From: Verrucomicrobiia bacterium
GTDB lineage: Bacteria; Verrucomicrobiota; Verrucomicrobiia; Limisphaerales; JADLHS01
Reading direction: 5' to 3'
Assembly (NCBI GenBank): GCA_011525685.1
Contig: WYBW01000020.1
Span: forward strand, 1 to 64,000
Length of the DNA stretch: 64,000 nucleotides
The number at the start of each line of letters is the position of its first letter. Within the stretch, counting starts at the first letter, position 1. This document shows positions 23,201 through 60,717 of the stretch, piece after piece. The notes under the pieces are model-generated. The model did no database searches and had not been told where the DNA came from. It saw only the letters and a program-made list of their open reading frames with translations. A program made the translations under genes and the position numbers.

Positions 23201-23373
23201 GCCTCGCGAGCATTGTCTCATCACACATTGAACTTGGGTAACATGTACGGGGTATGGGCGTTGTCGTGGTCGCGGGCTGGGCGTTGGGCGCGGGGATTTG
23301 CCAAACCGCCACGCCAGTGCGTGGACCTTTCGTTCCATTTACCGGCACACAGCCACCACGTAGGGTGCGCGCC

Positions 23374-27149: not shown

Positions 27150-30100
27150 TCACTGGCCCCGCACCCGATAAAACGCCGCGCCGTTGGTGGGCGAGAGGGC
27201 AAGGCTGTTGGTGGACAGATCCGAGGCAATAAATTCCCAGAGCGGTTCCGTGAGATTCGTGGTCATCTGCACCTGGTAGGGGGGCAAACCCCCGCTCCAG
27301 AGCAACCAGACTTCGGTCCCCTGCAAGGCCACAGCCAGAGTGATGGGCCCAGCCACGGTGAGGTTCATGGTGGCGTTGGCAAACAAGCCGGACGAGTCGG
27401 TGGCCCGCACGATGAAGCTGTTCTCCCCGACATTGCCGGCCAGCGGTGTGCCGGCAATGGCGCCATTGCCCGCCACACTCAGCCACGCCGGGCCGCTGAT
27501 TTTCGCGAAGGTGATTGCGTCGCCGTTCGGGTCGCTGGCGCGGTCGGCAATCGTCCCGGCGTACGCCTGACCGGCGCTGGCCGGCGGCGGGCTGAACGGA
27601 TTCGCCACAAACATCGGCGGCACATTGGTCCGGGCGTTGTAACGCGTCTGCACCTGGGCCGCGGACAGCGCATAACCGTAGATCGCCACTTCGTCAATCC
27701 AGCCGACGAACTGGTTGTTGTACGCACCGGCGGCGGCCTGCCTGGAGCCGATGGAGACCGCGTTGGCGGAACTCAAAATCCCGCTGCCGGCGGTGATGGT
27801 GCCGCTGGCGTTGGAGACGCCGTTGACATACAGAATCACCTGACCGGCCGTCATATTGCACACGCCCACGACGTGCTGCCAGGTGGCGTTGGGCGAAATG
27901 TTGCCATTGGCCACTCGCGCACTGCCGCCGGCGTCGCGCACGAAAAAGCGGAACGCGCGCGCGGCGCCCGACCCGGTGTCGAGGTTGAACTGCTCACCGC
28001 CGCCGCCCGTGCCCTTGGTCACGATGCCGGCGTCGGTGGTTTGCAGGCCGCCGCGCACCCAGGCCTCGACGGAGAAGGAGACGCTGCCATTGGTGGCGAA
28101 ATCCAGCGGGATGTTGCCCACGTAACTGTTGATCCCCGGCCCGAATCGCGCCGAGCGGTCGGGGTCCACCGGATTGTACCCCGCCTGATTGAGTATGACG
28201 TTGGTGTAAGTACCGTTGCGTCCGTTGACGTAATCATGCGCCACATTGCCGGCGGATTCATTGAGCCGCCAATAACCGAGCGGCTGGCCGGACAACACCG
28301 ATTGGACATAAGGAAAGTTGGTGGGCGACGGCGCCACCGTCAGCGACACGACGCTGCTGGTGACCATGCCAAAAGCATTGCTGACCAGGACGGTGTAATT
28401 GCCGGACTGACTGGGTTGCAGGTTGATGAGGCTGTAGTTGGAACTCGCGCCAAACGCCACGGGCGTGTCGTCGCGGTGCCAGTAATAGGTGAGCGGCAGG
28501 GCGCCGAACGCCCCCACCGACAATGTCGTACTCCGGCCAGTGAACAGCGACAGGCTCGCCGGACTGGGCTGCCGGGTGATCACTGGTTCGCGATGCAAGG
28601 TCAGGGTCGCCACCGCGCTGGTCGCGGCGCTGAGACTGTTGGTCACCACGACCCGAAAGCTGCCCGCGTCGCCGCTCTCGAGCACGGGGTTGAGGACCAG
28701 GTTGGAACTGGTCTGACCCTCGAGCGGAACAAAAGTGCCGGGGAGACCGTCCGGGCTGAAATACCACTGCCAGGCCAGCGGCGGCGTGCCCATCGCGGTG
28801 ACGCTGAAGCTGGCGCCCTGCGCCGGGAGATTGTTGGTCACCGAGCGCGGTTGCTGCGTGAGGATGACCTCCGGCGGCATGGCCCGGCCGCTGACGGCCA
28901 ACACGCCGGAGTTGAGGCTGCTGCCGCCAGCGGGATTGGTGAAGGTGATCGAAGCGATGGCCTCGTTCAACCCCAACGCTCCCAAATCAATCGTCGTATG
29001 GTAAAGGTTGGGGTTGTTCCAGCCAGGGTCCTCCGTGTTCAACAAAGCCTGGCCCACTCGCAGCCGGCCAAATCCCTCGATCGCCACGTTCGTGTCCGTG
29101 TTGTACCAGTCCTGCGCCCGGAGGCTGAAGACCTGGCTGCGGGTGCCGTTCGTGAAGTTGAGCACCAGAGTGCCGTTGCCACCGCCATTGGCCGAGGCCG
29201 CGAGGATGGCCAGGGAATTGTAGGCCCGCGGCTCGGCCAGCGTGAGGGTGCCAAAGCGCGGATAAGTGTTGCCCAGCATGAGGGCATTGGTGCCGCCATA
29301 GGGCCCGAGTTGAAAGACGCTGCCGTCGAACTGGCTCAGGATTCTTCCGTCGGGCGGCAAACCCTGGAGACCGCCGCTGCCGCCCACCTGCGTGTTGCCG
29401 CTCAAGCCGGCCTGGTAGAGAGCCCAGTTGTTCGCGATGTCAAAACCCGTCGCCTTGGGCAGCGCCGGGGTGGCGTTGTACGGCACCAACACACCCGCGT
29501 TCCAGCCGGTCAGGGCAATTGGCTGATTGACGGTCGAGTCAAGCACGCTGACCACGACGCGCCGGTTCAACTCGGTCAGGTCCGGGTCGTTCAAGTTGGT
29601 GAGGTTGACGAACAACTCGAACCGCACGGCGAGCATGGTGTTCGTGGCCAGCCGCCGGTAGTCCAGCCAGGCGTTATCCGCTGCGATGAGATCGCCATTC
29701 TCGGTGATCGAAAACGTGTTGCCCGTGTTGCCCGCGACGATCGCGTAGGCGTGCGGGTCCTCCGGATTGGTGGGCGGCACGTTACCAACCACCGTGCCGA
29801 TGGGGACGCGCTCCATCACACTCAACCGCGTGGGCAGCCGCGCGCCCTGGATTGAGCCAACCACGGAGTAATAGCCCAGACTGCCGTAGGCGCTGAAGCC
29901 GTTGGTCAACGGACTCTGCCGGCCCGCACCCGTCACGCGGAAGAGGTAAGTGCCCGCGGGCAGGTTGGTGCGGATGGTGGAGTGGAGCACGTTCTGGGGG
30001 CTGTTGCTGAACAGCACGCTGCCGCCCGCATCCGTCAGCGTGGCCGAGATGGCCAGGTTGGCCCAATCTCCCACCGGCCGGGCGGTGAGCGCCAGCGCGC

Positions 30101-31526
30101 CACCGGTGGTGGTGAAACGGAACGCATCCGTGTCGCCAGTGCGCTCGATCACACCCTCGGCAGTCGCGGCGAAGTCCGGAAAGATTTCCAGATACCGCGC
30201 GGTGGCCAGGGTCGCGCCGGTGTCATCGGGCCGATAAACCACGCCGTTCTGGGAGACAATCACGTTGAGATTATTCTGCGCGTTGTTGGCGTTGAGGTAT
30301 TCTCCCCGCGCCCAACTGGTGACGGGCCGCGAATAACCCAGCCCCATGATCGGCGCCCAGGCAGTCGCGCCGCTGCCGTGGCCGTCGAAGTATTCGTCGC
30401 TGCTGGTGCCCTGGTGGCCCAGGCCGAGGGTGTGTCCCGTTTCGTGCGTGCCGACTTCCGCGCCGGACTTGCCGGTCGTGTAAATGGACCAGCACACGGT
30501 ATCGTTGCCCCAGTTCCACGAGCCAATATAGGCCACGCCCGCCGCGCCGGATGGCATGGCGGACGTGGAGGGCGTGAAGACACAGCGCTGCCGGCTGTTG
30601 GCGGGCGCGGCCCTGAAGACCTCGATGTCGGTGGTGACGTTGATGTTGAACGGCAGGAAATCCTCCGCGACCCGCTTCCACAAATCCCGGATCTGCGCGT
30701 TGCTGACGTTCGGTTTGGGGTAACTGACCCCGCCCCACGTGGGCGTGTAACCGCCAAAGAAGTCCAGCAACAACACCGCCGGCGATCCCGGATAGCTTTG
30801 CAGCGAAACAATGTTGCTGTTGTGGGCGGGCACGTATTCCGGCACCAGGTCCGGTCGCAGCGGCGGAATCTCCTCGGGCGTTTCCGCGTGGGCTTCGACT
30901 TCGGGATTCAGCGGCAGGTTGACGCAAACCACCTCGTCCAGATGCCGTTGCCACAACTCCGGTCCACCACCCGGCGCGGTCGGCTCGATGCGATACGCGA
31001 TCTGGCTGGCGGGAAACTCGATCACGCCCACGGCTGCCCCCGCTCTGCCGCCCGGCGGTGGCGTCAGGAAGAAGAACCGGCCCGCCTCCGGTTCGCTGAG
31101 TTCGCCGGCGAGATACACCAGTTCGCCATCGCGATGTTGGCGGAGGTTCACCATGCCCACCGCCACCCGGCCCTCGGTAAGTTCAAACCGGATGGCATCG
31201 CCGCTGTTCACCTGCTCGAAACCCCGGAGAAAATTCTCATCCCAGGAACGCTTCGATCTTCCCGGCGATCGCAGCCCCGCCGCGTACGGATTGACCGCAA
31301 GGTCGAACTCCGGCGGCAGCGACTGATGGGTGGCTGCCATTGCCAACTCACCACCACGCGACGGCAAACCCGCAGCGGATACAGTCGCCGTACCGGGTGC
31401 GTGCATTGCGGTCGCAGGAGAATTTCCAAAGTCGCCACTTTCCGGGGAGGAGCGCAAGGCGATGAACAACCATCCGGCTGCAATGACCACCCCCAACCCC
31501 GCGAATAGAATGATAAACTTCTTCAT
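27150..31526 (-). CDS. Giant secreted zinc metallopeptidase with Ig, LamG and unknown modules
   Basis: The 1458-aa protein starts at the ATG at 31526 (MKKFIILFAGLGVVIAAGWL, a signal peptide or anchor). After a propeptide-like region, HETGHTLGLGHQG at about residue 361 gives the HExxHxxGxxH zinc site of metzincin-type peptidases; MGLGYSRP further on may supply the Met-turn. Then come roughly: a cadherin-like repeat (566-666), a GFN/DWFN module (669-886), two Ig-like domains (886-1062), a LamG domain (1079-1295), a putative-Ig domain (1306-1390), and the tail ending AAFYRVRGQ. It probably degrades or binds external polymers. It lies just after the lamin-tail/CotH gene on the same strand. Confidence 0.82.
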   Translation of the reverse strand: MKKFIILFAGLGVVIAAGWLFIALRSSPESGDFGNSPATAMHAPGTATVSAAGLPSRGGELAMAATHQSLPPEFDLAVNPYAAGLRSPGRSKRSWDENFLRGFEQVNSGDAIRFELTEGRVAVGMVNLRQHRDGELVYLAGELSEPEAGRFFFLTPPPGGRAGAAVGVIEFPASQIAYRIEPTAPGGGPELWQRHLDEVVCVNLPLNPEVEAHAETPEEIPPLRPDLVPEYVPAHNSNIVSLQSYPGSPAVLLLDFFGGYTPTWGGVSYPKPNVSNAQIRDLWKRVAEDFLPFNINVTTDIEVFRAAPANSRQRCVFTPSTSAMPSGAAGVAYIGSWNWGNDTVCWSIYTTGKSGAEVGTHETGHTLGLGHQGTSSDEYFDGHGSGATAWAPIMGLGYSRPVTSWARGEYLNANNAQNNLNVIVSQNGVVYRPDDTGATLATARYLEIFPDFAATAEGVIERTGDTDAFRFTTTGGALALTARPVGDWANLAISATLTDAGGSVLFSNSPQNVLHSTIRTNLPAGTYLFRVTGAGRQSPLTNGFSAYGSLGYYSVVGSIQGARLPTRLSVMERVPIGTVVGNVPPTNPEDPHAYAIVAGNTGNTFSITENGDLIAADNAWLDYRRLATNTMLAVRFELFVNLTNLNDPDLTELNRRVVVSVLDSTVNQPIALTGWNAGVLVPYNATPALPKATGFDIANNWALYQAGLSGNTQVGGSGGLQGLPPDGRILSQFDGSVFQLGPYGGTNALMLGNTYPRFGTLTLAEPRAYNSLAILAASANGGGNGTLVLNFTNGTRSQVFSLRAQDWYNTDTNVAIEGFGRLRVGQALLNTEDPGWNNPNLYHTTIDLGALGLNEAIASITFTNPAGGSSLNSGVLAVSGRAMPPEVILTQQPRSVTNNLPAQGASFSVTAMGTPPLAWQWYFSPDGLPGTFVPLEGQTSSNLVLNPVLESGDAGSFRVVVTNSLSAATSAVATLTLHREPVITRQPSPASLSLFTGRSTTLSVGAFGALPLTYYWHRDDTPVAFGASSNYSLINLQPSQSGNYTVLVSNAFGMVTSSVVSLTVAPSPTNFPYVQSVLSGQPLGYWRLNESAGNVAHDYVNGRNGTYTNVILNQAGYNPVDPDRSARFGPGINSYVGNIPLDFATNGSVSFSVEAWVRGGLQTTDAGIVTKGTGGGGEQFNLDTGSGAARAFRFFVRDAGGSARVANGNISPNATWQHVVGVCNMTAGQVILYVNGVSNASGTITAGSGILSSANAVSIGSRQAAAGAYNNQFVGWIDEVAIYGYALSAAQVQTRYNARTNVPPMFVANPFSPPPASAGQAYAGTIADRASDPNGDAITFAKISGPAWLSVAGNGAIAGTPLAGNVGENSFIVRATDSSGLFANATMNLTVAGPITLAVALQGTEVWLLWSGGLPPYQVQMTTNLTEPLWEFIASDLSTNSLALSPTNGAAFYRVRGQ
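28870..29520 (-). other. GFN/DWFN module, copy in the metallopeptidase
   Basis: Encodes IALTGWNAGVLVPYN through DWYNTDTNVAIEGFGRLRVG to GVLAVSGRAMPP. The lead motif is degenerate compared with the other three copies, but the later blocks TLTLAEPRAYNSLAIL and LAVSG are retained. Confidence 0.65.
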
Positions 31527-31645
31527 GACAGTCTCGCTCCCCACCGCACGCCGGCTCTGAACCAACCGTAGCGGCGCCCCATGTTGCCGCGGACCGGTTT
31601 CATCCCGTCACCGCGCGCGCTCACGTTAGATTGCGGCCGGGCACT

Positions 31646-34600
31646 TCACAAACGAATCCGGTAAAATTTTCGGGCCGAAGAAAGATCCACTTCAAAAGGC
31701 GGGATGGACGTTACGTCCACATACGGCCCGGAGACTTCGTCCGCCTCCTGCAACGTGCCTCTGGGCCACGTGAGCAGCATCTGATCTCCATCCACGATCA
31801 CGCCGATGGCCGGCGGCACATGCACTGTCACTTGAAAAGTCTTCGTGTCGCTCAGGCTCGGGATGCCGTCGTCCGTCACGATCACGCTGATCACGAGCGT
31901 CGCCGGGGCGGCGGTGGGCGTCCAGGAGAACTGACCGGTCAGGGCATTGATGAGCGCGCCGGGGGGCGCCTCCGGGCCGAGCGTGAAGATCAGGGTTTGC
32001 GCCGGCACGTCGCTGTCGCCGGCGCTGGCCGTGAACACCAGCGTCTGGCCCAGCGTCACCTCCTTGTCACTGATGGGATCCAAGGTGGGTGGCGTGTTGG
32101 GCAGCACGTTGCCGGCGCGCGGCGTGGGTGTGGGCATGGCAAAAATGGCGGCGGCCCCGTTCGGAAAGCGTCCTTCGCTCACGTCGCTGGTTTGCGGCCC
32201 GAACTCCAACGCGTCAATCTGGGTGCCGTCCGCGGCGAACAGTCCGATGGCTTCGCCGTTCAGGCTCAAGGCAAAGTCCACGTGGAGGTCCGCCCGGTTG
32301 GTGCTGTTCTGGTTGCTCTCGTTGTCGGCCCAGACCAGCAGATAACCACCAGGCGGCACAACGTAGTGGCCGTTGTTCGGCACGCGGAACTTGAACTTGT
32401 CCGCCAGATTGTCCGTGAGGTAGTAGCCGCCCACGTCCACCGCGTTCGTGCCCGGATTATACAACTCGAACCAATCCTCGAAGCCGCCGTCCGCCGGGTC
32501 GGCCAGCGTCCGCGTGTTGTCAGCCATCCATTCGTTGATGAAGACGGTGATGGGCGGGGAAGCGGCGTTGTTGGTGCCGCCGGGCGTGGTGAAAAACATG
32601 TTGCCGCGATAAAAGGGCTGTCCATCGGGCAGGTCGCCGTAGGACCAGTTCGCGGGCAGGCCGGTGTAGGTCAAATAGTCCACCAGTTGATTCGTGCCGC
32701 TCAACAACCGCGAAAGCGCGACCTGGCCGCTGCCGGAAGGCAACCGAAAATTGGTGTGCGGCGCGCCCGGCGCCGACTGGTTGGTCTGGTTGTCGCACCA
32801 GACGACCAGGAAACCGCCGGCGGGAATGGACGTGCCGGGGGGGAAATTCCACTTCGCCAGGTTGGTGTAGCTGTCCGACAAATAAAATCCGGTCATGCTG
32901 AGGGGGTTGTTGCCGGCATTGTAAATTTCCACCCACGGTTCGTGCTGGCCCAGGTTGTCCACCGGCCCGCTGAGATTGTCCGCCTGCAATTCATTCAACC
33001 ACACAAGCGGAAACGCCGGCAAAGTGGCCGCCACGGAATTGACCGCGCCGGGGGTTCCCACCTCGCCGGAAGTGCCCGCGAAGTTGGCATCCAGCTTCAG
33101 GCCAAAAGTGATGTCGGAACTGCCCGTGGTGTTCTGATGCACGGACACGGCAATCACGTTGTTCCCCGGCACAAAGAACGACGCCGGAATGAGGAAGGTG
33201 TCCGGGTTCAACGCATCGCCACCAGGCGGTTGGCCGGTGGCCAGCGTGGTGTTGGTGACCGTCACACCCTCCGTCACCCGCACCCGCTGCACTTCATTGC
33301 CGTTCACGTAAAACACCGCGCCGTCGTCCAGGTAGGCGCTGGCGTTGATGGTGAACCCGGTCAGGTTGCTGGCAAGGTTGATCGTTGTCCGGAAATAATA
33401 GGCGTGGCCCCCGGACAGGCCGTTGGTGGCGATGCGCGGATCCTTGAGGGTGGTCTGGATCAACGGCACGATGCTGGCGTTGTTCTCGAAGGCCAGCAAC
33501 CCGGGGCCGGACGGCCAGGCCGAATCGTTGTAGGCCGGCGCGGTCCAGTTGACGCTGTCGAGGTTGGACACCTGCATGAACTTCCACACGCTGGAAAAAT
33601 CCAGCAACGGCAGCGACTGCGGCGGGAGCGCGAACGCGGGGGCCACGTCCCAGTTGGCCACGCGGCTGTTGTCCTGCGCCGGGTCGCGCAGTTGCAGCGC
33701 GACCTTCCCGGTGGTGGCCGGCCACGGCGCGACCGCTTCGTAACGGACCCGGTCCACGACCGTGGGCGCTTCGGGCAGCGGGCCGGGCTGGAGCAGGCTC
33801 AATGTTTCCCCGTCGAACTGGAGGTTGCCGGAAAATCTGTCCTGCACCCGAACGCCGGCCCCATACGCCGTGTGGAACGCCGTGCGATCCTGGGCCAGCA
33901 CCAGGTAACTCCGCGGGCCGATCAGCGTGCCGCCCGGAAACGTGTAGCTCAGGCCGTTGAACTGCCAGCCCGACAAATCGAACGTGTAGTTGCTGGCGGT
34001 GTTGAAAAGCTCGACATACTTCGCCAGCGGCACCGCCGGGTTGAACATGATCTCATTGATCACCACCGCGTCCACGGGTGAGAGCACCGGACCGGTGTAA
34101 ACCACCGCAACGGTGTTGCTCGCGCCCGCAACCGGCTGACCGTTGACATCCAGTCCCACCAAGCTGAACACATTGTTGCCGGCCTGCAACGGCACCCGCG
34201 CCGTCCAGTTGTTCACGCTGGTCCAGGTCACCGTCCAGGGTGTGCCGTTCACCCCGATGGTCCTGGCGGCAATCGGCGCGCTGCCGCTGATCACTCCAAA
34301 GCCGTTGCTCACCGTCACGGAGGGATTCACCGTGAACGGCGAAGCGACCGTGGCCAGTTGGTTCAACAGGAACGCGCGCCGCTCGCTGAACCATTGTTTG
34401 ACCGCCGACGGGTTGGCGAGGGCCTGGCCATCGCACAGCGTCACACCGTTCTCCACCAGCGAGCGGTACTTGGCGTCCATCACCGGATCGCAATTCGCGG
34501 CCAGCAGCGGGCCGTCCACCGCCGCCTGCACGGCGCGGAAATAGGCGCGGCGGAAGGGCGGGTGGTTGTACAGGCGCGTGACGGTGGGGTCTTCGCTGGC

Positions 34601-37600
34601 GAACAACGGCCCGTTGCTCGCGGTGAAATTGCCGGGCCCGCCCACCGACACCAGCATCAGCCAATCGAGGTCGAAGGCGTAAAGCTGCCATTTCCCGCCC
34701 ACCGGCTTGTAATGGTACATGTTCTTGCCGATGTTGTGGCCCCAACTGTCGAAATTGTTGATGATGTGCTCGAAGGCGAACATGCCCATCATCTGTTCGA
34801 TGTCCACCAGCCCCTCGGTGTGGGTGGTGTACGGCTCGGGGGAGGTCGCGTTGAGCGCATCCACCAGCGCAAACAGGCTGGAAAAGTCGTGCGCGCGATG
34901 ATAGGCGCGCTTGAGCCAGGTCCAGCGATAGCGCTCGGTCTTTTTCTTCGTGCCCCCGTTCACCAGGTCCGGCGTGGTGTAGTCCTGGAGGCGAGGCATC
35001 GGTTCGGCCACCCGGCTGCCGCCGTCGCTGAACTCGAACGCGCGGTCAATCTTGAAGAAATCGCCCTCCGGCTGGTCGGGCATCCAAGCTTCAATGAACT
35101 CGCGTCCCGGTTGAATGACCGCTTCGAAGACGCCCCCGCGTTGCATGTCGCTGACACCGTTGACGCGCAGGCGGATGTGGTAGCGATGGCTGTAGGCCAG
35201 GTTCATCCGGTCGGCCATCCAGTAAGCCATCTGCTCCTGAATGGCGGTGTTCTCGCGCCCGTGACCGCCCGGCCAGTCAAGCACCAGTCCCGAGCTTCCG
35301 AGGAAGCGATCGTCAGAGGGCAACTCAATGCTGTAACCGCAACGATTGCCCGAGGGCGTGTTGAAACCGGGGGCGATGTAAGGGCTGCCGGCGTAACACG
35401 CGCCCGCGTTGTAAATCGCCCGCTGATTGCCCAGCACGAAGGTGATGTCGTTGAGCCGGTTGTCGAGGTTGTTCCGGTTGTCCCAGTTGTTGAAACTGGC
35501 CTGCGTCATCCAGAGGCCATACACGGGGAAGTTGCCGGTGGGAATCGTTTCGCCAAACCGGACCAGGCACTCGCGCGCCGGTGCGTTGCGCGGGAACGTG
35601 GCGGTGGCCGCGGGCGCAAATCCATCCGTGGCCTGAACGTGAAAGGCCACCAGCACGTTGGCGGCCTGACCCGGGATGGTCGCGCTGAAGAGCCCATCGT
35701 TGGCCACGGCGTCGCCGCCCGTACCGTTGTCGTTCATCGTGACGTCGGTGATCGTGGCGGAAGGGTCCACGCGATAGCGGAGTTGCATGGAAACCACGCC
35801 CTGCGGGTCGTGCGCACGGGCCGTCACCACCACGGGTTCGCCGGCGGCAGGCGTGACCGGCGCATGAGAGACTTCGTAAATCGCCGGTGGGGCGTTGTTG
35901 ACCCGGCGGCTGTTGGGCGCGCCGGGCGTGCCGAGATTGGTGGGCAGGGTCATGGTACCGGCGGCCTCGAGCCAGTTGCCGCGCAAGCGCAACAGGATTT
36001 CCGGATGGCCGCGCAGCCAGCGCACCCGGGCGCGCAAGGTCGCGGTCGAGTTGGCGGGCAGCGACACCGACAGCGGCGTGCGGGTGCGGTTCAACTGATT
36101 ATCGCCACGGCTCTCGGCACGCAGGCGGTACGAGCGCGCGCTCGCGTAGCCTTCGGCTGTTTCCCAACCGGACGGCGCCTGCGTGCCCTCGGAAGTCCAG
36201 CCGGTACTGCTGGCTTCGAAGGTGGAATTCGCGATGCGATTGGTATTGCCGGCGTCCAGCACCTCCACGTCGTCAATCAAACACTCGCCCGCACCCAGCA
36301 AGAGCACTTGCAGCGAGTCCGCCGCCACGTTCCCGTTGTCCAGCCGGCCCGTTTGCGAAACGAGCGTCCAGGGCGCCTTGGCCGATTCGTCACTGTCCGC
36401 CCAGTTGGCCGCCAGCCGGTTGTTGGCGTGCGGATCAATCAACTCCAGGCTGCTGCCGCCGCCATCGGACCACGATGGGCCGTCGCCCTGCGACCCCCAG
36501 CGGCCGCCGTCGTGATAGGTCACTTCATTGACCACGATGTGAAAGAAGTTCGTAACCACCACGCTGCCGTTGGTGCTGACGATGCTGTCCGGTTTGCGCA
36601 GCGCGACGCGCTCGCCGCGCCCGGACAGGTTGCCGCCAAAGTTTCCGAAGACGATACCGGGGTTCACCGCCGGGTGGTTGGTGAGGAACCGCGCGCGGTT
36701 GTTGGCCACCACCACATACCCGTTGGCCGCTATGACCGCGTGTTCGGGAAAGGTGTAACTGATCCCGTCGCTCAAGGTCCAGCCGCCGAGATTCACCGGG
36801 CCGGCGGCGCGGTTGTAAAGCTCGACGTATTGGTCGGCGTCTTCGCCGCTGATCGGATGGTACATCAGTTCATTGAGGACCACGTCGCTGATGAGAATGG
36901 GGGCGTTGTTCGTGCCTGGCGTCTTGGCCGCGAGCCGGTAAAACTGCTCCGCACCGTCGGGCGAGCGGCCCGTGGCAATGTCGTTTTCCTGACCGCGGAA
37001 ACGCACCGCGTCCAACACGCGCGTGCGGTCCGGGTTTTTGAAATAGATCGTTTCGCCATCCGCGCTGAGGGCGAAGCCCAGCGTCGTTTCCGTGAAGAAG
37101 CGGAAGCCGCGCGGTGGAATCGTCGTGCCCGCCGGGATGATGAACTTGTCCACGGCCGGGTTGTCCGAGAGCACGCAATGCGAGAGGTCCACCGCTTCGT
37201 TGCCGCGGTTGTAAAGCTCGACGTAATCCAGCACCGGCAGATCGGTGTGCGCGAGGAATTCGTTGAGGACCACGTTCCGGAGCGGGTCGGGCGTGAACGG
37301 ATCAAGCCGCCCGGGAGAACCGCCCACCGCGTCGCTGGCCGCCCAGGCGCGTGGATCGTTCTCACCATACGAGGGCCGCGCCAGCACCAGCGAATGGCCC
37401 GCGCCATCGGCCGCGGCCGGCCAAGGAACATCGTCGGTGTAATTGACCTCGAGAAAAACCGCGCCCATCGGGTTGCGCAACCGCACCCGTCCGGCGTCGT
37501 TGGGCAGATTGTTGGTAAACGGTCCAAGCACTCCGGTGACGCCGTACGCGTCCTGCAAATCCACCGGCGACCGCGCCACCACCAGCAAGCCGCCGCCGGG

Positions 37601-39637
37601 AATGACCGTGCCCGGCGGGAACGTGTAAGCAATGTCGCCACTGAGCCGGTAACCGCTCAGGTCCTCCGGTTCGCCCCGCGTGTTGAACAACTCAACGAAC
37701 TCGAGGACCGCGTTGGTGGGATGATACATGATTTCCGAGATCACCAGGCTCGTCAGCCGGCTGGACTGGCCCGGCATCTCAAAAGGCAGTGAGGCGTTCG
37801 CGCCCGCGGCTGTCACGTCCGACAAGTCACGAAACGCCGCCGTGGCCGTCTGGGCTGCGTTATGGCTGGCAACCCCGAAGCCGAGATAAACCGTCGCCGG
37901 CAACGGCAGGCTGGCCGTGCCCAACTGCGTCCAGTTCTGGCCGTCGAACCCGGCGAAGCCGGTGAACACATTGCCGACGCGCCGCAACCGCAGCCAGGTG
38001 TGGGGATAATTCACGCGAAACACGCCGGACAGCGTGGTGCTGCCGTTGGTCGCGGCGCGCGCCTGGAAATAGCAGCCGCTGATGCTCGGCGTGGCCATGA
38101 CGCTCGCCGACCGCGCGCCCGGGGTGAGACCCTCGCGCGCCACCAGACCCGCCTCGCTCCAGGCGTCGGCCAGTGTCAGCGACTCCAACCGCACCTTCAC
38201 GTCAAAGTCGCCGGTGCGCGTCTCGTGACTGAATTGGAATTGGTCGTTCAATCCGCCGAGATCGGCGCCGCCGCCGGTGAGATTCAGTCCGTTGCCCGCC
38301 ACGACCTGGCCGCCGGCCGGCAGCGGATTGCCGATGCCCACCGTGGCATACCGGCTGGCCATGAACCCCGCCTGCGAGTTGTTTGTGATGACGTTTCCGC
38401 CTGCGGACTGGTCCGCGACGTTGTTCACCGTCAGCGTGTAAAAGGCTCGATCCACCAAGGCGGAAACGGTGAGCAGGACGTTGCTTTGCGAGGCATCCAA
38501 CGTGGCGGCGGAAACGGTCACCGGCCCGTTGGTGCCCGTCACCGAATAGTTGCTGGGATTCCCGGCGGTGGCGGGCGCGAGTCGTTCGGAAAAGGCCGCC
38601 AGCACCTGCCCCAAGCCTTGCGATTGAGCGCCGAGCAGCACGGGCGGATTGGTGTCGGCCAGCACCGTGAGCGTGGCGGCCGGGCTGGTGACCACCTGGC
38701 TGATGCTGTTGATCACGTTGGAAGCCACGAGCCGGATGGCGGCGTTGTGGTGGCTCATGCTCGCCGTGAAGGTCCAGGTGGAATTCGTGGCGCCGGCCAT
38801 CGGTGTCCCGTTGAGCAACCATTGCAACGCCGGCGAGGGATTTCCCGTCACCACCGCGCTGAAGCTGGCGGGCGTGGCCTCCACCACCGTCAGGCTGCTT
38901 GGTCCGCTGAGAATCGCGGGGGGCGATTCCGGCGACACCTCTCCGCTCACGGCATAGATGCCGGTCGAACCCGCCGCAGCCTTGCCGAAGGTGAGACTGG
39001 CCAGCGGCTTGTTGGTCGGGCCGAGCAGGACACTCAGGTCAAGGGTGGTCTGGTAAAAGCGCGGGTTGGTGGTCGCGCCCGAGGTGCTGCCGTTGGAAAG
39101 GTTGATGCGTTCGACGCCCAGCAACGCCGCGCCGCTGTTGTTGAACCAGTCGGGCGCGTCGTAGGTGGTGACGAAGGAAGTGCCATCGGTGAAATTCAAC
39201 GTCAACCCCGCCGAACTGCCGCCGCTGGCCGAGTTGGCAATGACCGCAATGCGGCGGTACGTCCGCGGCGTGGTCAACGTCAACGTCCCTTCGGTCAGAC
39301 CGGTGGCGCTGCTCAATACCAGGACATTGTTGGCGGTGTAAGGTTGAAACTGGAAGACCGTGCCATCGCCCAGCGCGCTGACAAAGCTGCCGCTGACCGG
39401 CAATCCGTAGGTCTTGCCCGGCAGACCGCTCTGGTAGAAGGAAAGGTTCTCGCCCGGATTCAACTCGACGGCAACGCCCACATAGGGCGGGCCGGCGGCG
39501 GTGTTCTCCACCACCACGTCCCGGTTGAAGCCGGTGACCGTGATCGGCGTCATGTCCGCGGCCAGCGCCGCCGACATCAGGCAGCCGAGAGCGGTGAACG
39601 CCAAAACCCCCTGCTCCATCCTAAGACTGATCAACAT
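31646..39637 (-). CDS. 2663-aa secreted lamin-tail/CotH multidomain protein
   Basis: A signal peptide (VLAFTALGCLMSAALAA) precedes, in rough order: a GFN/DWFN module (30-240), an Ig-like domain (to 330), a DUF1349/concanavalin-like segment (450-613), three lamin-tail domains (from 628, 788 and 920; LVISEIMYHPTNAVLEFVEL), a CotH-kinase-like region (about 1360-1760), three more lamin-tail domains (from about 1860, 2212 and 2365), a putative-Ig domain, and the tail RKFYRIRL. The CotH signature NNFDSWGHNIGKNMYHY with LYAFDLDW is intact. CotH proteins phosphorylate secreted proteins in spores; the role here is unknown. A second ATG lies six codons in. It is among the largest genes one would expect in such a genome. 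Confidence 0.83.
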   Translation of the reverse strand: MLISLRMEQGVLAFTALGCLMSAALAADMTPITVTGFNRDVVVENTAAGPPYVGVAVELNPGENLSFYQSGLPGKTYGLPVSGSFVSALGDGTVFQFQPYTANNVLVLSSATGLTEGTLTLTTPRTYRRIAVIANSASGGSSAGLTLNFTDGTSFVTTYDAPDWFNNSGAALLGVERINLSNGSTSGATTNPRFYQTTLDLSVLLGPTNKPLASLTFGKAAAGSTGIYAVSGEVSPESPPAILSGPSSLTVVEATPASFSAVVTGNPSPALQWLLNGTPMAGATNSTWTFTASMSHHNAAIRLVASNVINSISQVVTSPAATLTVLADTNPPVLLGAQSQGLGQVLAAFSERLAPATAGNPSNYSVTGTNGPVTVSAATLDASQSNVLLTVSALVDRAFYTLTVNNVADQSAGGNVITNNSQAGFMASRYATVGIGNPLPAGGQVVAGNGLNLTGGGADLGGLNDQFQFSHETRTGDFDVKVRLESLTLADAWSEAGLVAREGLTPGARSASVMATPSISGCYFQARAATNGSTTLSGVFRVNYPHTWLRLRRVGNVFTGFAGFDGQNWTQLGTASLPLPATVYLGFGVASHNAAQTATAAFRDLSDVTAAGANASLPFEMPGQSSRLTSLVISEIMYHPTNAVLEFVELFNTRGEPEDLSGYRLSGDIAYTFPPGTVIPGGGLLVVARSPVDLQDAYGVTGVLGPFTNNLPNDAGRVRLRNPMGAVFLEVNYTDDVPWPAAADGAGHSLVLARPSYGENDPRAWAASDAVGGSPGRLDPFTPDPLRNVVLNEFLAHTDLPVLDYVELYNRGNEAVDLSHCVLSDNPAVDKFIIPAGTTIPPRGFRFFTETTLGFALSADGETIYFKNPDRTRVLDAVRFRGQENDIATGRSPDGAEQFYRLAAKTPGTNNAPILISDVVLNELMYHPISGEDADQYVELYNRAAGPVNLGGWTLSDGISYTFPEHAVIAANGYVVVANNRARFLTNHPAVNPGIVFGNFGGNLSGRGERVALRKPDSIVSTNGSVVVTNFFHIVVNEVTYHDGGRWGSQGDGPSWSDGGGSSLELIDPHANNRLAANWADSDESAKAPWTLVSQTGRLDNGNVAADSLQVLLLGAGECLIDDVEVLDAGNTNRIANSTFEASSTGWTSEGTQAPSGWETAEGYASARSYRLRAESRGDNQLNRTRTPLSVSLPANSTATLRARVRWLRGHPEILLRLRGNWLEAAGTMTLPTNLGTPGAPNSRRVNNAPPAIYEVSHAPVTPAAGEPVVVTARAHDPQGVVSMQLRYRVDPSATITDVTMNDNGTGGDAVANDGLFSATIPGQAANVLVAFHVQATDGFAPAATATFPRNAPARECLVRFGETIPTGNFPVYGLWMTQASFNNWDNRNNLDNRLNDITFVLGNQRAIYNAGACYAGSPYIAPGFNTPSGNRCGYSIELPSDDRFLGSSGLVLDWPGGHGRENTAIQEQMAYWMADRMNLAYSHRYHIRLRVNGVSDMQRGGVFEAVIQPGREFIEAWMPDQPEGDFFKIDRAFEFSDGGSRVAEPMPRLQDYTTPDLVNGGTKKKTERYRWTWLKRAYHRAHDFSSLFALVDALNATSPEPYTTHTEGLVDIEQMMGMFAFEHIINNFDSWGHNIGKNMYHYKPVGGKWQLYAFDLDWLMLVSVGGPGNFTASNGPLFASEDPTVTRLYNHPPFRRAYFRAVQAAVDGPLLAANCDPVMDAKYRSLVENGVTLCDGQALANPSAVKQWFSERRAFLLNQLATVASPFTVNPSVTVSNGFGVISGSAPIAARTIGVNGTPWTVTWTSVNNWTARVPLQAGNNVFSLVGLDVNGQPVAGASNTVAVVYTGPVLSPVDAVVINEIMFNPAVPLAKYVELFNTASNYTFDLSGWQFNGLSYTFPGGTLIGPRSYLVLAQDRTAFHTAYGAGVRVQDRFSGNLQFDGETLSLLQPGPLPEAPTVVDRVRYEAVAPWPATTGKVALQLRDPAQDNSRVANWDVAPAFALPPQSLPLLDFSSVWKFMQVSNLDSVNWTAPAYNDSAWPSGPGLLAFENNASIVPLIQTTLKDPRIATNGLSGGHAYYFRTTINLASNLTGFTINASAYLDDGAVFYVNGNEVQRVRVTEGVTVTNTTLATGQPPGGDALNPDTFLIPASFFVPGNNVIAVSVHQNTTGSSDITFGLKLDANFAGTSGEVGTPGAVNSVAATLPAFPLVWLNELQADNLSGPVDNLGQHEPWVEIYNAGNNPLSMTGFYLSDSYTNLAKWNFPPGTSIPAGGFLVVWCDNQTNQSAPGAPHTNFRLPSGSGQVALSRLLSGTNQLVDYLTYTGLPANWSYGDLPDGQPFYRGNMFFTTPGGTNNAASPPITVFINEWMADNTRTLADPADGGFEDWFELYNPGTNAVDVGGYYLTDNLADKFKFRVPNNGHYVVPPGGYLLVWADNESNQNSTNRADLHVDFALSLNGEAIGLFAADGTQIDALEFGPQTSDVSEGRFPNGAAAIFAMPTPTPRAGNVLPNTPPTLDPISDKEVTLGQTLVFTASAGDSDVPAQTLIFTLGPEAPPGALINALTGQFSWTPTAAPATLVISVIVTDDGIPSLSDTKTFQVTVHVPPAIGVIVDGDQMLLTWPRGTLQEADEVSGPYVDVTSIPPFEVDLSSARKFYRIRL
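38925..39555 (-). other. GFN/DWFN module, copy in the lamin-tail/CotH protein
   Basis: Follows the signal peptide directly: ITVTGFNRDVVVEN, then GTLTLTTPRTYRRIAVI, NFTDGTSFVTTYDAPDWFNN, and GIYAVSGEVSP. It is one of the two clearest copies. Confidence 0.75.
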
Positions 39638-39686
39638 GCTGCGTCATTATACTCATCAGGGGCGGATTACCCAAGTGTCTCATTGG

Positions 39687-39717
39687 AAAAAAAGGCCGGG
39701 CACGAGGCCCGGCCTTT
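39687..39717 (-). terminator. Rho-independent terminator after the lectin/LamG gene
   Basis: On the minus strand AAAGGCCGGGC pairs with GCCCGGCCTTT in an 11-bp perfect stem with a 5-base loop, followed by seven T residues (39687-39693). It lies 30 bases after the stop at 39747 and ends that transcript before the next gene starts at 39637. Confidence 0.88.
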
Positions 39718-39746
39718 GAACTCCGTTCACCCGCGGGTCAACCACC

Positions 39747-42700
39747 TCATGGCACAAGCCGCAGCCGGAAGAAGCTGTCGCTGTCCGAAACCGGCACGGT
39801 CAGTTCGCCATTGGTGGTCGTGGGAACGTCCACCCATGGACCCGCATCCACGACGCGGTTGGATTGCACCACGTAGCCGCCAATCGAAGTCGGCCACGTG
39901 AGTTGAACCGTGTCCGGGCCGGTGGACTGAAGCGCGAGGGTCGGCAACGGCACAAACGTGAAGTTGGAGATCGTCTGGGTCGAGACGACGCCACCGTCCG
40001 CGCCGGTGAAACCGACGTAGGCCGTTTGCGATCCAAGCACCGCTGGCAGGTTGATGGCGACATTCGTGACGAACGTGGCGGCGGTCACCGCATCCGTCAG
40101 CGACAGTTGCAGCCCGCCCGAGACGTAGCGGACCCGGGCATTGATGCGATTGCCGCTGGCTACGTTCAATGGCGTGGTCACCGTGTAGCCCCCCGCAGCC
40201 GGGATGGCGCCATTCAGACTCAAGGCAATGCCGATGGTGTTGGGGGCATAGACATTGAACAGCACGGCCGCACTGGGCGTGATGCCGGAGTAACCCAGGC
40301 TGCCACCGCCCCCGCCGAGGGCCGTGGTGCCGCGCGGATCATTGTGAAGGACGAAGGCCATGCCGTCCGCCGCGCCGGCGCCGGGCAGTTCCTGATACGT
40401 GAACCCGGCCTCGAACGCGCCGATGAACATCGGGTAGGCGTAGAAGGCACTGCGAGCGGTGTTGCCAGCGCCCACCGTCAGCGTCAGCACGCCATCCGTG
40501 ATGGTGGCCGGTCCCGGAGTGCCGTTCATCGTCCAACCGGCTCCGTTGGTGTTGAGCTGCGGCACTGATTGGACAAACACCGACGACAAGGTGCTGCTCA
40601 CCGGGCCGCCGGCGGCGCTGGTGGCATGCACCTGATAAACCCCGGTGTCGCTGGTCTGCGCGTTGGCAATCTGCAACTGCCGGGTCTGGGCGCCGCTCAC
40701 GCGACCGCCGTCCGACAAGTTCACCGAGTTGCGCTGCCATTGATAGGAAATGGGCTCCGTGCCGCCGGTTTCGACGGTCAAGGTGAGCGTGCGCCCGGCG
40801 TACACCACCGAACTGGCCGGCAGGTCGGTGATGAAGAATGGCGGCCCGCTATTGATCGTCAGTTGCACAGCCGGGAAGGCATTCGGATCGGGATTGATCA
40901 CCGAGCCGTACGGGTTGCTGGCCGCCACACGGTAGGAACTGCCGTTCATGGCGAGCGTCACCGGGCTCAACACCAGATTGTTGGAAGTCCCGATCGGACC
41001 CGGAACCGGGACACCCGGCTCGCCCGCGGTGACATTGTACCATTGGTAAGTTATCGGACCCGGTCCATAAGCAGACGAGTAGAAGATGGCCGTGCCGCCT
41101 TCGTTGACCGTCGTGTTGGTCGGTCCGTAGCTGAATACCGGCGGGTACTGGCCGGCATAGAAGTGGTTGAGCACCTGGCTGGGACTCAACGCGTAATTGT
41201 AAACCGCCACATCGTCAATCACGCCCACGAATTGCATGTTGAAGTCGGTCGCGCCGCTCTGACGGGCGCCGATGCTTACCGGGCTGAGGGTGTTGAGTGC
41301 CCCGCTGCCCGCCGGAGCCAGACCGGAAGCAGCCAACACACCGTCCACGTAGAGCAAGACCTCGCCATTGGCCTGATCCACTACGCCGACGACGTGATGC
41401 CATGCGCTGTTCAAGGTCACGGAACTGGAGGCCAGCCGCGCCACGCCCGCCGCGTCGCGGTAGAAGAACCGCAGGCCGTTGCCGGCGCCGCCGAAGTCGA
41501 GGTTGAACTGTTCCCCACCGCCGCCGGTGCCCTTGGTGATGACACCCGCCCCGGCGGTTTGCGCGGGACCGTTGAGCCAGGCTTCCACCGAGAAGTTCAC
41601 CGTGGCGTTGGAGGCGGCAAAGCTCAGGCCTTGGATGTCCGACACCCGGCTGTCCGAGAAGAAGGGCGTACCGAATTGGGCCGCCCTGTCCGCGTCAGCG
41701 GTCGGGTTGTAACCCGGCACCTGAACGACGGCATTGAGGTAGGTCCCGTTACGGCCACCGCGGTAATCCCGGGCCACAAGACCGACGTTGCCACCGCCGT
41801 CGTCCGGACCTTCGTTCAAACGCCAGTAGGCGATTGGATTGTCGGCCAGGATTGCCGCCGGGTAAGGCTCCGTCGGAGGCGAAATCACCATCAGCGTCAC
41901 CGCCGTGCTGTTGATGGAACCGAAGATGTTGTTGGCCACACAATGGAATGTGGCGCCCGAATCACCCAACTGGGCGCCCACCAGGGTGTAGGTGGAATTG
42001 GTGGCGCCGGTAATGAGCGTGGTGCCGTTCCGATACCACTGATAGGTGGGCGGCGGATAGCCGGACGCGGAGACTCCGAACGTGGGAGAGGCGCCGGCAT
42101 ACACGGTCGCACTTGACACCGGCTGGCGCGTCCAAACCGGCGGGTTGGGCACCAGCGTGCCCAACAACTCGATCTCGCCAATCTGCATCAGCGCCTGGCG
42201 GAAACGGTCGAAGGTGTTGGTGATGGTAAACCGGTAGGACCGGTAACCGGTGGTGTTGGCAAAGTCCACCTCCAGCACACTTTGCGTCAACGGATTCAAC
42301 GCGGTGGCACCCGTGCCATTCCGGGCGGTCGGTATGATCAGCGATCCTTTCAAGACGCCACCCGTGATGTGGTTCCAAGTGCCGCCTCCATCGTTCGAGC
42401 CTTCGAGAGTGTAATCCATCGGGTCGCGGCCGAGCGTGTCATTGGCCGCGTAAAACCGGATGGAGGTGACAATCGAATCACCGGATACCGGCGTCACTAC
42501 ATACCCGACCGGTCCGGTGAAAGGAAGGACCTGGTTGTTCTGCCCCCAGCTCAGCCACTTCTGGGCCACGCGGTCTATGGCGTGGTCCACACTCTCCGCC
42601 GCCGGCGCGCCTTCACCAGTGTAACCGGCGATGGTGTCTCCGCCGGACAAGCCCACCAGAATGCTCTGGTTGGTCGTCAACACCATTACCGTCGCCACAA

Positions 42701-44498
42701 AGCTGGTGAAGGAGCCGTGGGGATTCGAGGCGATCACGAGGTAATCCGCCGTATCGGCAAGGGTAGCGTTGCTGATGACCAGCGAACTGGTGGTGGCGCC
42801 GGAAATCCGGCCGCCATCCACGACGTCCGAAAACGCCGCATAATCAATGGTATAAAGCCAGTCGCTCCACCCGGTGCCGCGCGGCGCTTTCTTCCATTGA
42901 TAAGTGACCGGTGCGGTTCCGGCCCGGGTGGTAACCGAGAGGGTGACGTTGTTCGTGCCTTCCCAAGTCTTGACCATCGTGACGTTGTTGGCCACCGCGC
43001 CGCCGGGTTGGGTGGCCAGGACCGGAGGAACGCTGGCGGCGGGCGCGCCGCTCACCGCAAAGATGGCCGCGGTGGCGGTGGTGACGCCGTTGGTCCGGGT
43101 GAGGGCGATGTTGGTGATGGCGACGGAACTGTTCGTGACGTTAATCACCGCGTTGAAGAGCCGGGGCACCGGCGTGGCCAGCCCCCGCGGTTCGAGCATC
43201 ACCGGCCCCGCGAAGGGGTTGACGAACTGATCGGGAGTCTGGTTGAGCGACCGCGTGGCGGGCAGCACCCGGCCGAAAGAGAGATAAGCCCAAGGATCCG
43301 TCCGGTTGAACCAGTCGAGCACGGTGATGGCGTTGGTTTCGGTGGTGCCGTCCTGGAACTCGATGACGCAGGGAATGGTGGTGGCCCCGTTGGCGCCGGC
43401 GCAGAGAAACGCCAGCGCTCCATACGCGGCCGGCGTGGCGAAACTGATGTTCGCTGTCGGAACATTGGAAGCTAGGAACACCGCGCAGTTCCCGTTGTAA
43501 CTGGCGGGCATCGTGAATTGCGCGGCCAGTGAGGTGCTGGTGAAGCTCGCTCCCGGCGCCGGCAGGCCGGTGTTGGGGGCGGCGGCGTAGTAACCGCGCT
43601 CATACCAGGTGTTGTTCAACAGACTGGTGCCGCCGTCCATCGTGGCCGTCACCACCCCGGCCGGCATCGGCGTGTTGAGCGGCCCGTCCGCCTCCATCAC
43701 CACGTCGTAATTGAAACCCGTCACCGCCACGGGGGTGTAGTTCACGGCATCCGGCGAGCCGGCAACCGCAAAGATGGCGGTGCGCCCGTTGTTGTTCGTG
43801 TTGCCGTTGCCGCCCGAGCCGTCGTAGAAAAAGTCAATGCGCGCGACGTTGGCCGCGGGGTTGCCGAGGAAAATGTCCGCCGCGTAAAGCTGCGCCGCCC
43901 GCTCGCCCACGGCCCGCACGTCGTAAGCGCCCGTGCCGATGTTGATTCGGCCGCGGTTCGTGTAAACCGCATTGTCGTTGTTGAACCAATCCAAGGAGAT
44001 GAACACACCCTCCTCGGTGCTCGTATCGGCATAATGGATCACGTAACGCACCCGGACCGGGCCGTTGCCCGCTGCATTGAGGAAGGACAACGCCCCGAAA
44101 GGCGCCGGCGTGGTCAGGGTGAGCGTGCCGGCCGGGATCAACGGCGTGGCGGCGCCGGCGTTGCGACCCACCAGCAAAGCGTTATTGGCCCGGTAATCCG
44201 GCGGAAGCTGGAACACCCTGGTGCCCGCCGCGTTGGCGAGCAGCGAGCCGGCCGGAGGCATGCCCGTGTCCAGCGCCGCGGCATTGGTGTTGTATCCGCG
44301 TTCGTAAAACGTGTTGCCCGTCTTGTTGGTGCCGCCGTCCATGGTGGCGGTGACCGCGCTGCTCAACGGCGGCGGCGCGGTCTGCTCGACCACGACGTCC
44401 TGATTGTAACTTTCCGGCGCCAGCGGAATCGGTGTGAACTGGGCCTGCGCCGAGGCCGCAAAAGCCAGGGCCAATGTGAGCGTGAGATTTCGTTTCAT
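39747..44498 (-). CDS. 1583-aa secreted lectin/LamG protein with two GFN/DWFN modules
   Basis: A signal peptide (MKRNLTLTLALAFAASAQA) leads into two tandem GFN/DWFN modules (about 22-255 and 255-487). Then follow an F5/8-type carbohydrate-binding-like region (615-785; FYAANDTLGRDPMDYTLEGS), Ig-like domains, a LamG domain (888-1110; FSVEAWLNGPAQTAGAGVIT), further Ig-like domains, and an L-type lectin-like domain (1313-1518; DGMAFVLHNDPRGTTALGGG). The tail ends DSFFRLRLVP. No catalytic domain is visible, so a role in surface adhesion or polysaccharide binding is likely. It is followed by a strong terminator. A pseudopilin gene lies upstream on the same strand. Confidence 0.82.
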   Translation of the reverse strand: MKRNLTLTLALAFAASAQAQFTPIPLAPESYNQDVVVEQTAPPPLSSAVTATMDGGTNKTGNTFYERGYNTNAAALDTGMPPAGSLLANAAGTRVFQLPPDYRANNALLVGRNAGAATPLIPAGTLTLTTPAPFGALSFLNAAGNGPVRVRYVIHYADTSTEEGVFISLDWFNNDNAVYTNRGRINIGTGAYDVRAVGERAAQLYAADIFLGNPAANVARIDFFYDGSGGNGNTNNNGRTAIFAVAGSPDAVNYTPVAVTGFNYDVVMEADGPLNTPMPAGVVTATMDGGTSLLNNTWYERGYYAAAPNTGLPAPGASFTSTSLAAQFTMPASYNGNCAVFLASNVPTANISFATPAAYGALAFLCAGANGATTIPCVIEFQDGTTETNAITVLDWFNRTDPWAYLSFGRVLPATRSLNQTPDQFVNPFAGPVMLEPRGLATPVPRLFNAVINVTNSSVAITNIALTRTNGVTTATAAIFAVSGAPAASVPPVLATQPGGAVANNVTMVKTWEGTNNVTLSVTTRAGTAPVTYQWKKAPRGTGWSDWLYTIDYAAFSDVVDGGRISGATTSSLVISNATLADTADYLVIASNPHGSFTSFVATVMVLTTNQSILVGLSGGDTIAGYTGEGAPAAESVDHAIDRVAQKWLSWGQNNQVLPFTGPVGYVVTPVSGDSIVTSIRFYAANDTLGRDPMDYTLEGSNDGGGTWNHITGGVLKGSLIIPTARNGTGATALNPLTQSVLEVDFANTTGYRSYRFTITNTFDRFRQALMQIGEIELLGTLVPNPPVWTRQPVSSATVYAGASPTFGVSASGYPPPTYQWYRNGTTLITGATNSTYTLVGAQLGDSGATFHCVANNIFGSINSTAVTLMVISPPTEPYPAAILADNPIAYWRLNEGPDDGGGNVGLVARDYRGGRNGTYLNAVVQVPGYNPTADADRAAQFGTPFFSDSRVSDIQGLSFAASNATVNFSVEAWLNGPAQTAGAGVITKGTGGGGEQFNLDFGGAGNGLRFFYRDAAGVARLASSSVTLNSAWHHVVGVVDQANGEVLLYVDGVLAASGLAPAGSGALNTLSPVSIGARQSGATDFNMQFVGVIDDVAVYNYALSPSQVLNHFYAGQYPPVFSYGPTNTTVNEGGTAIFYSSAYGPGPITYQWYNVTAGEPGVPVPGPIGTSNNLVLSPVTLAMNGSSYRVAASNPYGSVINPDPNAFPAVQLTINSGPPFFITDLPASSVVYAGRTLTLTVETGGTEPISYQWQRNSVNLSDGGRVSGAQTRQLQIANAQTSDTGVYQVHATSAAGGPVSSTLSSVFVQSVPQLNTNGAGWTMNGTPGPATITDGVLTLTVGAGNTARSAFYAYPMFIGAFEAGFTYQELPGAGAADGMAFVLHNDPRGTTALGGGGGSLGYSGITPSAAVLFNVYAPNTIGIALSLNGAIPAAGGYTVTTPLNVASGNRINARVRYVSGGLQLSLTDAVTAATFVTNVAINLPAVLGSQTAYVGFTGADGGVVSTQTISNFTFVPLPTLALQSTGPDTVQLTWPTSIGGYVVQSNRVVDAGPWVDVPTTTNGELTVPVSDSDSFFRLRLVP
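43040..43740 (-). other. GFN/DWFN module, second copy in the lectin/LamG protein
   Basis: Encodes YTPVAVTGFNYDVVMEA, then TPAAYGALAFLCAGANG, IEFQDGTTETNAITVLDWFN and ATAAIFAVSGAPA. It abuts the first copy with almost no linker. Confidence 0.75.
43750..44440 (-). other. GFN/DWFN module, first copy in the lectin/LamG protein
   Basis: Encodes SYNQDVVVEQTAPPP, TLTLTTPAPFGALSFLNAAG, EEGVFISLDWFNNDNAVYTN and RTAIFAVAGSPD. G-F in the lead motif is replaced by S-Y. Confidence 0.7.
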
Positions 44499-55603: not shown

Positions 55604-55623
55604 CGGAGCGAGACAACCGCGGG

Positions 55624-56550: not shown

Positions 56551-56706
56551 ATTCTCCGGCTCAAAGAAACACGATGCTCAGTCACCGCCAAGAAGATTTC
56601 CCGCCAAAGACTCTGCCTGACTCCACAGAACCTGCTGCCTCACGCGCAGCCGGCACAATCTGAGCGAAGCAACATCGCGGCACCGCGAGAATCGCCGAGC
56701 CCTGCG

Positions 56707-59373: not shown

Positions 59374-60713
<1,340 letters not shown>

Positions 60714-60717
<4 letters not shown>

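What the first reader, a model, noticed from the sequence alone, without database searches (positions are those of the whole stretch)
28870..44440. Unnamed ~200-residue GFN/DWFN module, four copies in three adjacent giant secreted proteins
Seen: the segments at 43750-44440, 43040-43740, 38925-39555 and 28870-29520 share, in order, (T)GFNxDVVVE, GTLTLTTPxxYxxLAxLxA, FxDGTxxxxxxxxDWFN, a G/R-rich turn, then AIFAVSGxxxP. They occur next to the signal peptide in two proteins and in mid-chain in the third. The rest of each protein is a different mix of Ig, LamG, lectin, protease and CotH parts. I do not recognise a named family. Inference: a beta-sandwich surface or glycan-binding module spreading among these proteins.
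Basis: partly seen in the sequence, partly recalled or inferred. Interest (0 to 1): 0.76.

Follow-up and report, generated by a model that had tools for sequence, protein, structure and literature searches.

The report
Unregistered glycan-binding-like module, AziU3/U2 fold
Three neighbouring secreted bacterial proteins carry four old copies of an unnamed beta-sandwich module whose closest solved fold is an antibiotic-making enzyme complex (AziU3/U2), and whose relatives sit on mannan- and N-glycan-cutting enzymes, so it is probably a new kind of sugar-targeting module.

Summary
The four segments are homologous copies of one ~205-residue module (pairwise scores 135-296; shuffle maximum 78), in proteins of 1583, 2663 and 1471 residues. 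No Pfam or NCBIfam model covers them.

The family is in 22% of sampled genomes of the window's order (Verrucomicrobiota subdivision 3), is rarer in other Verrucomicrobiota, and also occurs in Planctomycetota and Bacteroidota. Models of two divergent copies (pLDDT 96 and 92) have the same best PDB match, the aziridine synthase AziU3/U2, at Z 16.0 and 17.6; the next best scores about 8.

Copies group by host-protein type, not by genome. Each window copy has its own orthologues elsewhere and the gene order recurs, so recent 'spreading' among these neighbours is not supported.

Relatives are fused to GH76 mannanases (12 of the 28 long GH76 proteins in the order, in two arrangements), to GH85 N-glycan endoglycosidases (one in a GH92/GH125/GH130 locus), to a GDSL hydrolase and to proteases, or stand alone with PEP-CTERM-like anchors.

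Best reading: a secreted accessory module that binds glycan, probably mannose-rich. Binding is inferred, not shown. New variant of a known kind, with a surprising fold relationship.

The parts
43755..44417 (-). module copy c1, first of the N-terminal tandem of P0001
   Evidence: model m3a78bd6a8821, pLDDT 91.6
43023..43733 (-). module copy c2, second of the tandem of P0001
38930..39550 (-). module copy c3, next to the signal peptide of P0002
   Evidence: model m30f4058d113e, pLDDT 96.4
28872..29516 (-). module copy c4, mid-chain in P0003
39747..44498 (-). P0001, 1583 aa: signal peptide, two modules, Ig domains, LamG, legume-lectin-like domain
   Evidence: orthologues
31646..39637 (-). P0002, 2663 aa: signal peptide, module, Ig-like, six lamin-tail domains, CotH kinase
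   Evidence: orthologues
27150..31565 (-). P0003, 1471 aa (likely start ATG at 31526): zinc metalloprotease (HETGHTLGLGH), module, Ig, LamG, He_PIG
   Evidence: orthologues L080 and L084
39693..39710 (-). terminator-like hairpin between P0001 and P0002
   Evidence: one site found, 0.3 expected from shuffles, so only weak evidence

Best explanation
Each segment is one copy of an undescribed, about 205-residue extracellular beta-sandwich module. It shares the AziU3/U2 fold, which resembles carbohydrate-binding modules only in general shape. It most likely works as an accessory binding module. The host protein is exported by its signal peptide, the module holds a glycan or glycoprotein surface, and the other parts (GH76 or GH85 glycosidase, zinc protease or subtilase, GDSL hydrolase, CotH kinase, lectin/LamG domains, or a PEP-CTERM-like anchor) act there or tie the complex to the cell. 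Mannose-rich glycans (alpha-mannan, high-mannose N-glycans) are the best guess for the ligand of at least part of the family. Shown: homology, fold by prediction, secretion signals, and the association with alpha-mannan and N-glycan enzymes. Inferred: that the module binds, and what it binds. Likelihood: glycan-binding accessory module about 0.55; mannose-rich ligand for many members about 0.35.
For: Fusion to GH76 in two arrangements: after GH76 in L075, L076, L083 and as a tandem before GH76 in L086; the copies of these two kinds fall in different clades. Twelve of the 28 GH76 proteins of at least 900 aa in 293 genomes carry the module. GH85 endoglycosidases of Segatella and Prevotella end in it; the Segatella gene lies beside two GH92, a GH125 and a GH130 gene. 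These families act on N-glycans or alpha-mannose (PMC10154615). Sole domain of five small secreted proteins with PEP-CTERM-like tails. All-beta models whose background matches, well below AziU3/U2, are largely carbohydrate-binding modules. Signal peptides in the host proteins.
Against: No binding data. The closest fold is an enzyme complex, not a binding module, and the CBM matches at Z 7-8 are no better than the usual background. Many host proteins, including all three in the window, carry no glycosidase, and the window's genome has no GH76 match. GH76 co-occurrence was not corrected for kinship or genome size.
Confidence: 0.55

Rival explanations
1. A structural or protein-binding module: a spacer or assembly domain of the cell envelope that binds other proteins or keeps catalytic parts away from the cell, with no specific glycan ligand.
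For: It occurs in very different proteins, often in tandem beside Ig and LamG domains, and alone with PEP-CTERM-like tails.
Against: It is associated with alpha-mannan and N-glycan enzymes in two separate lineages of Verrucomicrobiota copies and in Bacteroidota. A strictly kept Asp-Trp pair and other polar or aromatic residues are more than a plain spacer needs, although they may serve the fold.
Confidence: 0.22
2. A far-diverged member of an already known carbohydrate-binding or F5/8-type (galactose-binding-like) family that sequence models miss.
For: General beta-sandwich shape; Z 7-8 matches to CBM29, CBM86, CBM11 and CBM32 structures.
Against: No Pfam match in any member at relaxed cut-offs. 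AziU3/U2 matches over 174-178 residues at Z 16-17.6, while CBMs align over only about 110-125 residues.
Confidence: 0.13
3. A catalytic domain related to AziU3/U2, for example one that acts on sulfated or otherwise activated sugars.
For: The best fold match is an enzyme complex that forms an aziridine by sulfate displacement (PMC12559475). The Asp-Trp pair is kept in nearly all copies.
Against: Only 10-15% identity to AziU3/U2 and no detectable sequence link. It is an extracellular domain, often in tandem, attached to proteins that already have catalytic domains.
Confidence: 0.05

Closest known systems
AziU3/U2 aziridine synthase of azinomycin biosynthesis, Streptomyces sahachiroi (PDB 7wuw, 8gs1)
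   Same: Fold over nearly the whole module: Z 16.0, 178 residues, 3.3 A for c3; Z 17.6, 174 residues, 2.6 A for c1.
   Different: 10-15% identity, no sequence-profile match in the PDB sequences. AziU3/U2 is a biosynthetic enzyme complex; this is an extracellular accessory domain. Which of the two subunits the matched chains are could not be read from the tools.
Carbohydrate-binding modules with a beta-sandwich fold (CBM29, CBM86, CBM11, CBM32 and others)
   Same: General beta-sandwich shape, similar place in secreted glycosidases.
   Different: Structural Z only 7-8, which is background level; no sequence match; longer (about 205 against 120-170 residues).
F5/8 type C (discoidin) domain, PF00754
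   Same: Used as accessory domains in the same kinds of secreted proteins, even in the same GH85 proteins.
   Different: Pfam finds the F5/8 domain elsewhere in those proteins (764-880 of L093) and not over the module (1157-1354).

Membership tests
AziU3/U2-type fold family | same three-dimensional fold over the domain | tested here: met
   two independent models, Z 16.0 and 17.6, next chains at 7.9 and 8.6; predicted, not solved
AziU3/U2-type fold family | sequence homology to AziU3 or AziU2 | tested here: inconclusive
   profiles A4, A5 and A8 do not reach the PDB chains; the AziU3/U2 sequences were not at hand for a direct profile comparison
AziU3/U2-type fold family | catalytic residues and aziridine-forming activity | not tested
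Carbohydrate-binding module (CAZy CBM) | contiguous module attached to carbohydrate-active enzymes | tested here: met
   GH76 and GH85 fusions; not in the window's own three proteins
Carbohydrate-binding module (CAZy CBM) | shown carbohydrate binding | not testable with these tools
   needs purified protein
Carbohydrate-binding module (CAZy CBM) | sequence match to an existing CBM family | tested here: inconclusive
   no match to the Pfam or NCBIfam models; CAZy and dbCAN models were not available
F5/8 type C domain (PF00754) | matches the Pfam model over the module | tested here: not met
   no match over the module in any member; Pfam finds F5/8 domains elsewhere in the same proteins

The most novel reading that the evidence does not exclude
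A new family of secreted mannose-glycan-binding modules, spread across Verrucomicrobiota, Planctomycetota and Bacteroidota, is the extracellular parent or sister family from which the aziridine synthase AziU3/U2, whose fold was reported as new, was recruited as an enzyme.
Probability: 0.2. Interest if true: 0.75.

Novelty: new variant of a known kind. Interest (0 to 1): 0.52.

Why it matters
If the module binds sugar, it founds a new carbohydrate-binding module family with a ligand hypothesis that can be tested directly. It would help annotate many giant Verrucomicrobiota surface proteins of unknown purpose. The AziU3/U2 match, if it is real kinship, gives a relative to an enzyme fold that had been presented as new, and a possible route from binding module to antibiotic-making enzyme.

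Tried and rejected
Recent spread of the module between the three adjacent genes: rejected by the tree. A known Pfam or NCBIfam domain: none. Phage origin: no tblastn hit in phage records, none confirmed in viral contigs, and only weak, partial matches among viral structure predictions. A sequence link to AziU3/U2 through PDB searches: none found. Identity of the unnamed N-terminal domain of the roughly 990-1080 aa mid-chain relatives (A7): no PDB sequence match. A literature description of the module in Limisphaerales: none found in the held library. One exact DNA pattern for the GFN motif found nothing, because the pattern was too strict.

Full report
OBSERVATION. The three minus-strand reading frames hold four copies of one module at 43755-44417, 43023-43733, 38930-39550 and 28872-29516. 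All pairs align far above shuffled controls (scores 135-296; highest shuffle 78). The window's genome of 6.7 Mb has these four copies and no others at E <= 0.001. P0001 and P0002 start with signal peptides (read by eye from the sequence). P0003 has an N-terminal hydrophobic segment and its likely start is the ATG at 31526. A terminator-like hairpin lies between P0001 and P0002.

NO NAMED FAMILY. Pfam and NCBIfam do not cover the segments in the three proteins, nor does either library match sets of aligned relatives above noise (Pfam: 60, 21 and 12 members; NCBIfam: 60 members). PDB sequences give nothing. CAZy models were not available.

DISTRIBUTION. A scan of 84,980 species genomes gave 37 loci, nearly all in Verrucomicrobiota subdivision 3 (Limisphaerales, Pedosphaera), with two Phycisphaerales. 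In the window's order 65 of 293 genomes have it, some with ten copies, the most that were scored per genome. In the rest of the phylum sample 10 of 288 do. It is also on a plasmid of Frigoriglobus tundricola (Planctomycetota) and in Prevotella and Segatella (Bacteroidota). None were found in phage records or confirmed in viral contigs. The one sampled genome of the same genus lacks it, so it is patchy.

FOLD. AlphaFold2 with 60 and 39 aligned natural sequences gave confident all-beta models for c3 (pLDDT 96.4) and c1 (91.6), two copies about 30% identical. Both have the same best match among solved structures: AziU3/U2 of azinomycin biosynthesis (7wuw, 8gs1), Z 16.0 with 178 residues and Z 17.6 with 174 residues. 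The next chains are at Z 7.9 and 8.6, mostly PAPP-A and carbohydrate-binding modules. Foldseek alone agrees (E 1e-5 and 1e-7). Two separate models guard against a chance hit, and the gap to the background is large. The AlphaFold 3 paper describes the AziU3/U2 complex as having a novel fold (PMC11168924). Its reaction is described as sulfate displacement to form an aziridine (PMC12559475; PMC9570651). The primary paper (JACS 2022, 10.1021/jacs.2c07243) was not readable here. Kinship with AziU3/U2 is therefore inferred from shape alone.

HISTORY. On a tree of 108 copies, copies group by type of host protein far more than under shuffled labels (20 changes against a mean of 64.5). c1 pairs with the first module, and c2 with the second module, of the same P0001-like protein in L026 (supports 97 and 98). 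c4 pairs with the metalloprotease orthologue L080 (support 97), with L084 next. c3 lies among the CotH orthologues. Full-length orthologues of P0001, P0002 and P0003 occur in other genomes. A P0001-like gene directly upstream of a P0002-like gene recurs in L026, L031, L035, L040 and L089, and a P0003-like gene directly downstream of a P0002-like gene is seen in L029. The four copies are thus old and inherited with their genes.

COMPANY. The module is on GH76 enzymes in two arrangements: one copy after GH76 and BACON-like domains (L075, L076, L083), and two copies before GH76 (L086). Of 83 GH76 proteins in 293 genomes, 12 carry it, all among the 28 that are at least 900 aa long (the printed module list was cut, so 12 is a lower bound). 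Genomes with GH76 have the module in 37 of 52 cases, others in 28 of 241; kinship and genome size are not corrected for. In Segatella hominis it lies at the end of a GH85 endoglycosidase beside two GH92, a GH125 and a GH130 gene. Two adjacent Prevotella proteins have it; the one scanned is GH85, and SusC/SusD-like genes follow. GH85 enzymes characterised so far act on N-glycans only, and GH92 and GH125 demannosylate them (PMC10154615). It is also on a GDSL hydrolase (L069), a subtilase (L061) and metalloproteases (P0003, L084). It is the sole domain of five small proteins with PEP-CTERM-like tails. The window's genome has two GH92 genes but no GH76 match.

MECHANISM. Shown: one family, exported proteins, predicted fold, and non-random company. 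Inferred: the module binds glycans so as to hold enzyme or cell to substrate, in the manner of a carbohydrate-binding module. Mannose-rich glycans are the best first candidate because GH76, GH85, GH92, GH125 and GH130 act on mannans, N-glycans or their products. The repeated, separate association with such enzymes is the main argument against a mere spacer. Within the window, P0003 (zinc protease) may cut glycoproteins, P0001 may be an adhesin or lectin, and the role of CotH in P0002 is open. These last roles are guesses from domain names.

MEMBERSHIP. It has the fold of AziU3/U2 but no shown sequence kinship or chemistry, so it is not filed as an AziU3/U2 enzyme. It behaves like a carbohydrate-binding module in position, but binding is untested and no CBM family could be matched. 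It is not an F5/8 type C domain by Pfam.

VERDICT. A real, unregistered domain family with a testable ligand hypothesis and an unexpected fold relative. New variant of a known kind (accessory binding modules of secreted proteins).

Noticed in passing
window 51672-59078 (-): A run of genes that looks like a sialic-acid utilisation cluster: two BNR-repeat (sialidase-like) proteins, a NanM-like epimerase fused to a sodium:solute symporter, a DHDPS-family (NanA-like) gene and a GlcNAc 2-epimerase; a sigma-54 response regulator follows at 59374-60717.
   Followed up: partly
ends of P0001, P0002, P0003 (39747-39940, 31646-31810, 27150-27340); L068 776-3733: The three proteins, and a relative, end in a similar ~60-residue tail with a central W and a terminal F(Y/F)R; possibly a shared C-terminal sorting or attachment domain.
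   Followed up: partly
L063-L067: Five small proteins (269-321 aa) from other Verrucomicrobiota lineages consist of signal peptide, one module and a PEP-CTERM-like tail.
   Followed up: partly
L071 5738-8971, L072, L073, L074, L077-L079, L081, L068 (alignment A7): The c4-type module often follows a conserved ~300-residue N-terminal domain with invariant Asp-Asp-Glu and an LQCYDGG-like motif. It looks like a glycosidase-type barrel by eye, but Pfam (checked on L068, L071, L073, L078) and PDB sequences do not name it.
   Followed up: partly
L091 (Frigoriglobus tundricola plasmid pPL17-1, 1921-3663): The annotated WD40 protein start (2326) lies inside the module, whose match begins near 2150; the gene probably starts further upstream.
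   Followed up: no
G033 contig C18, 213-223 kb: One genome has six module copies side by side, including a GH76-bearing protein next to a 2852-aa open frame with c3-type modules.
   Followed up: no
window 23254-25386 (+): A 710-residue WD40-repeat protein resembling eukaryotic-type beta-propellers.
   Followed up: no
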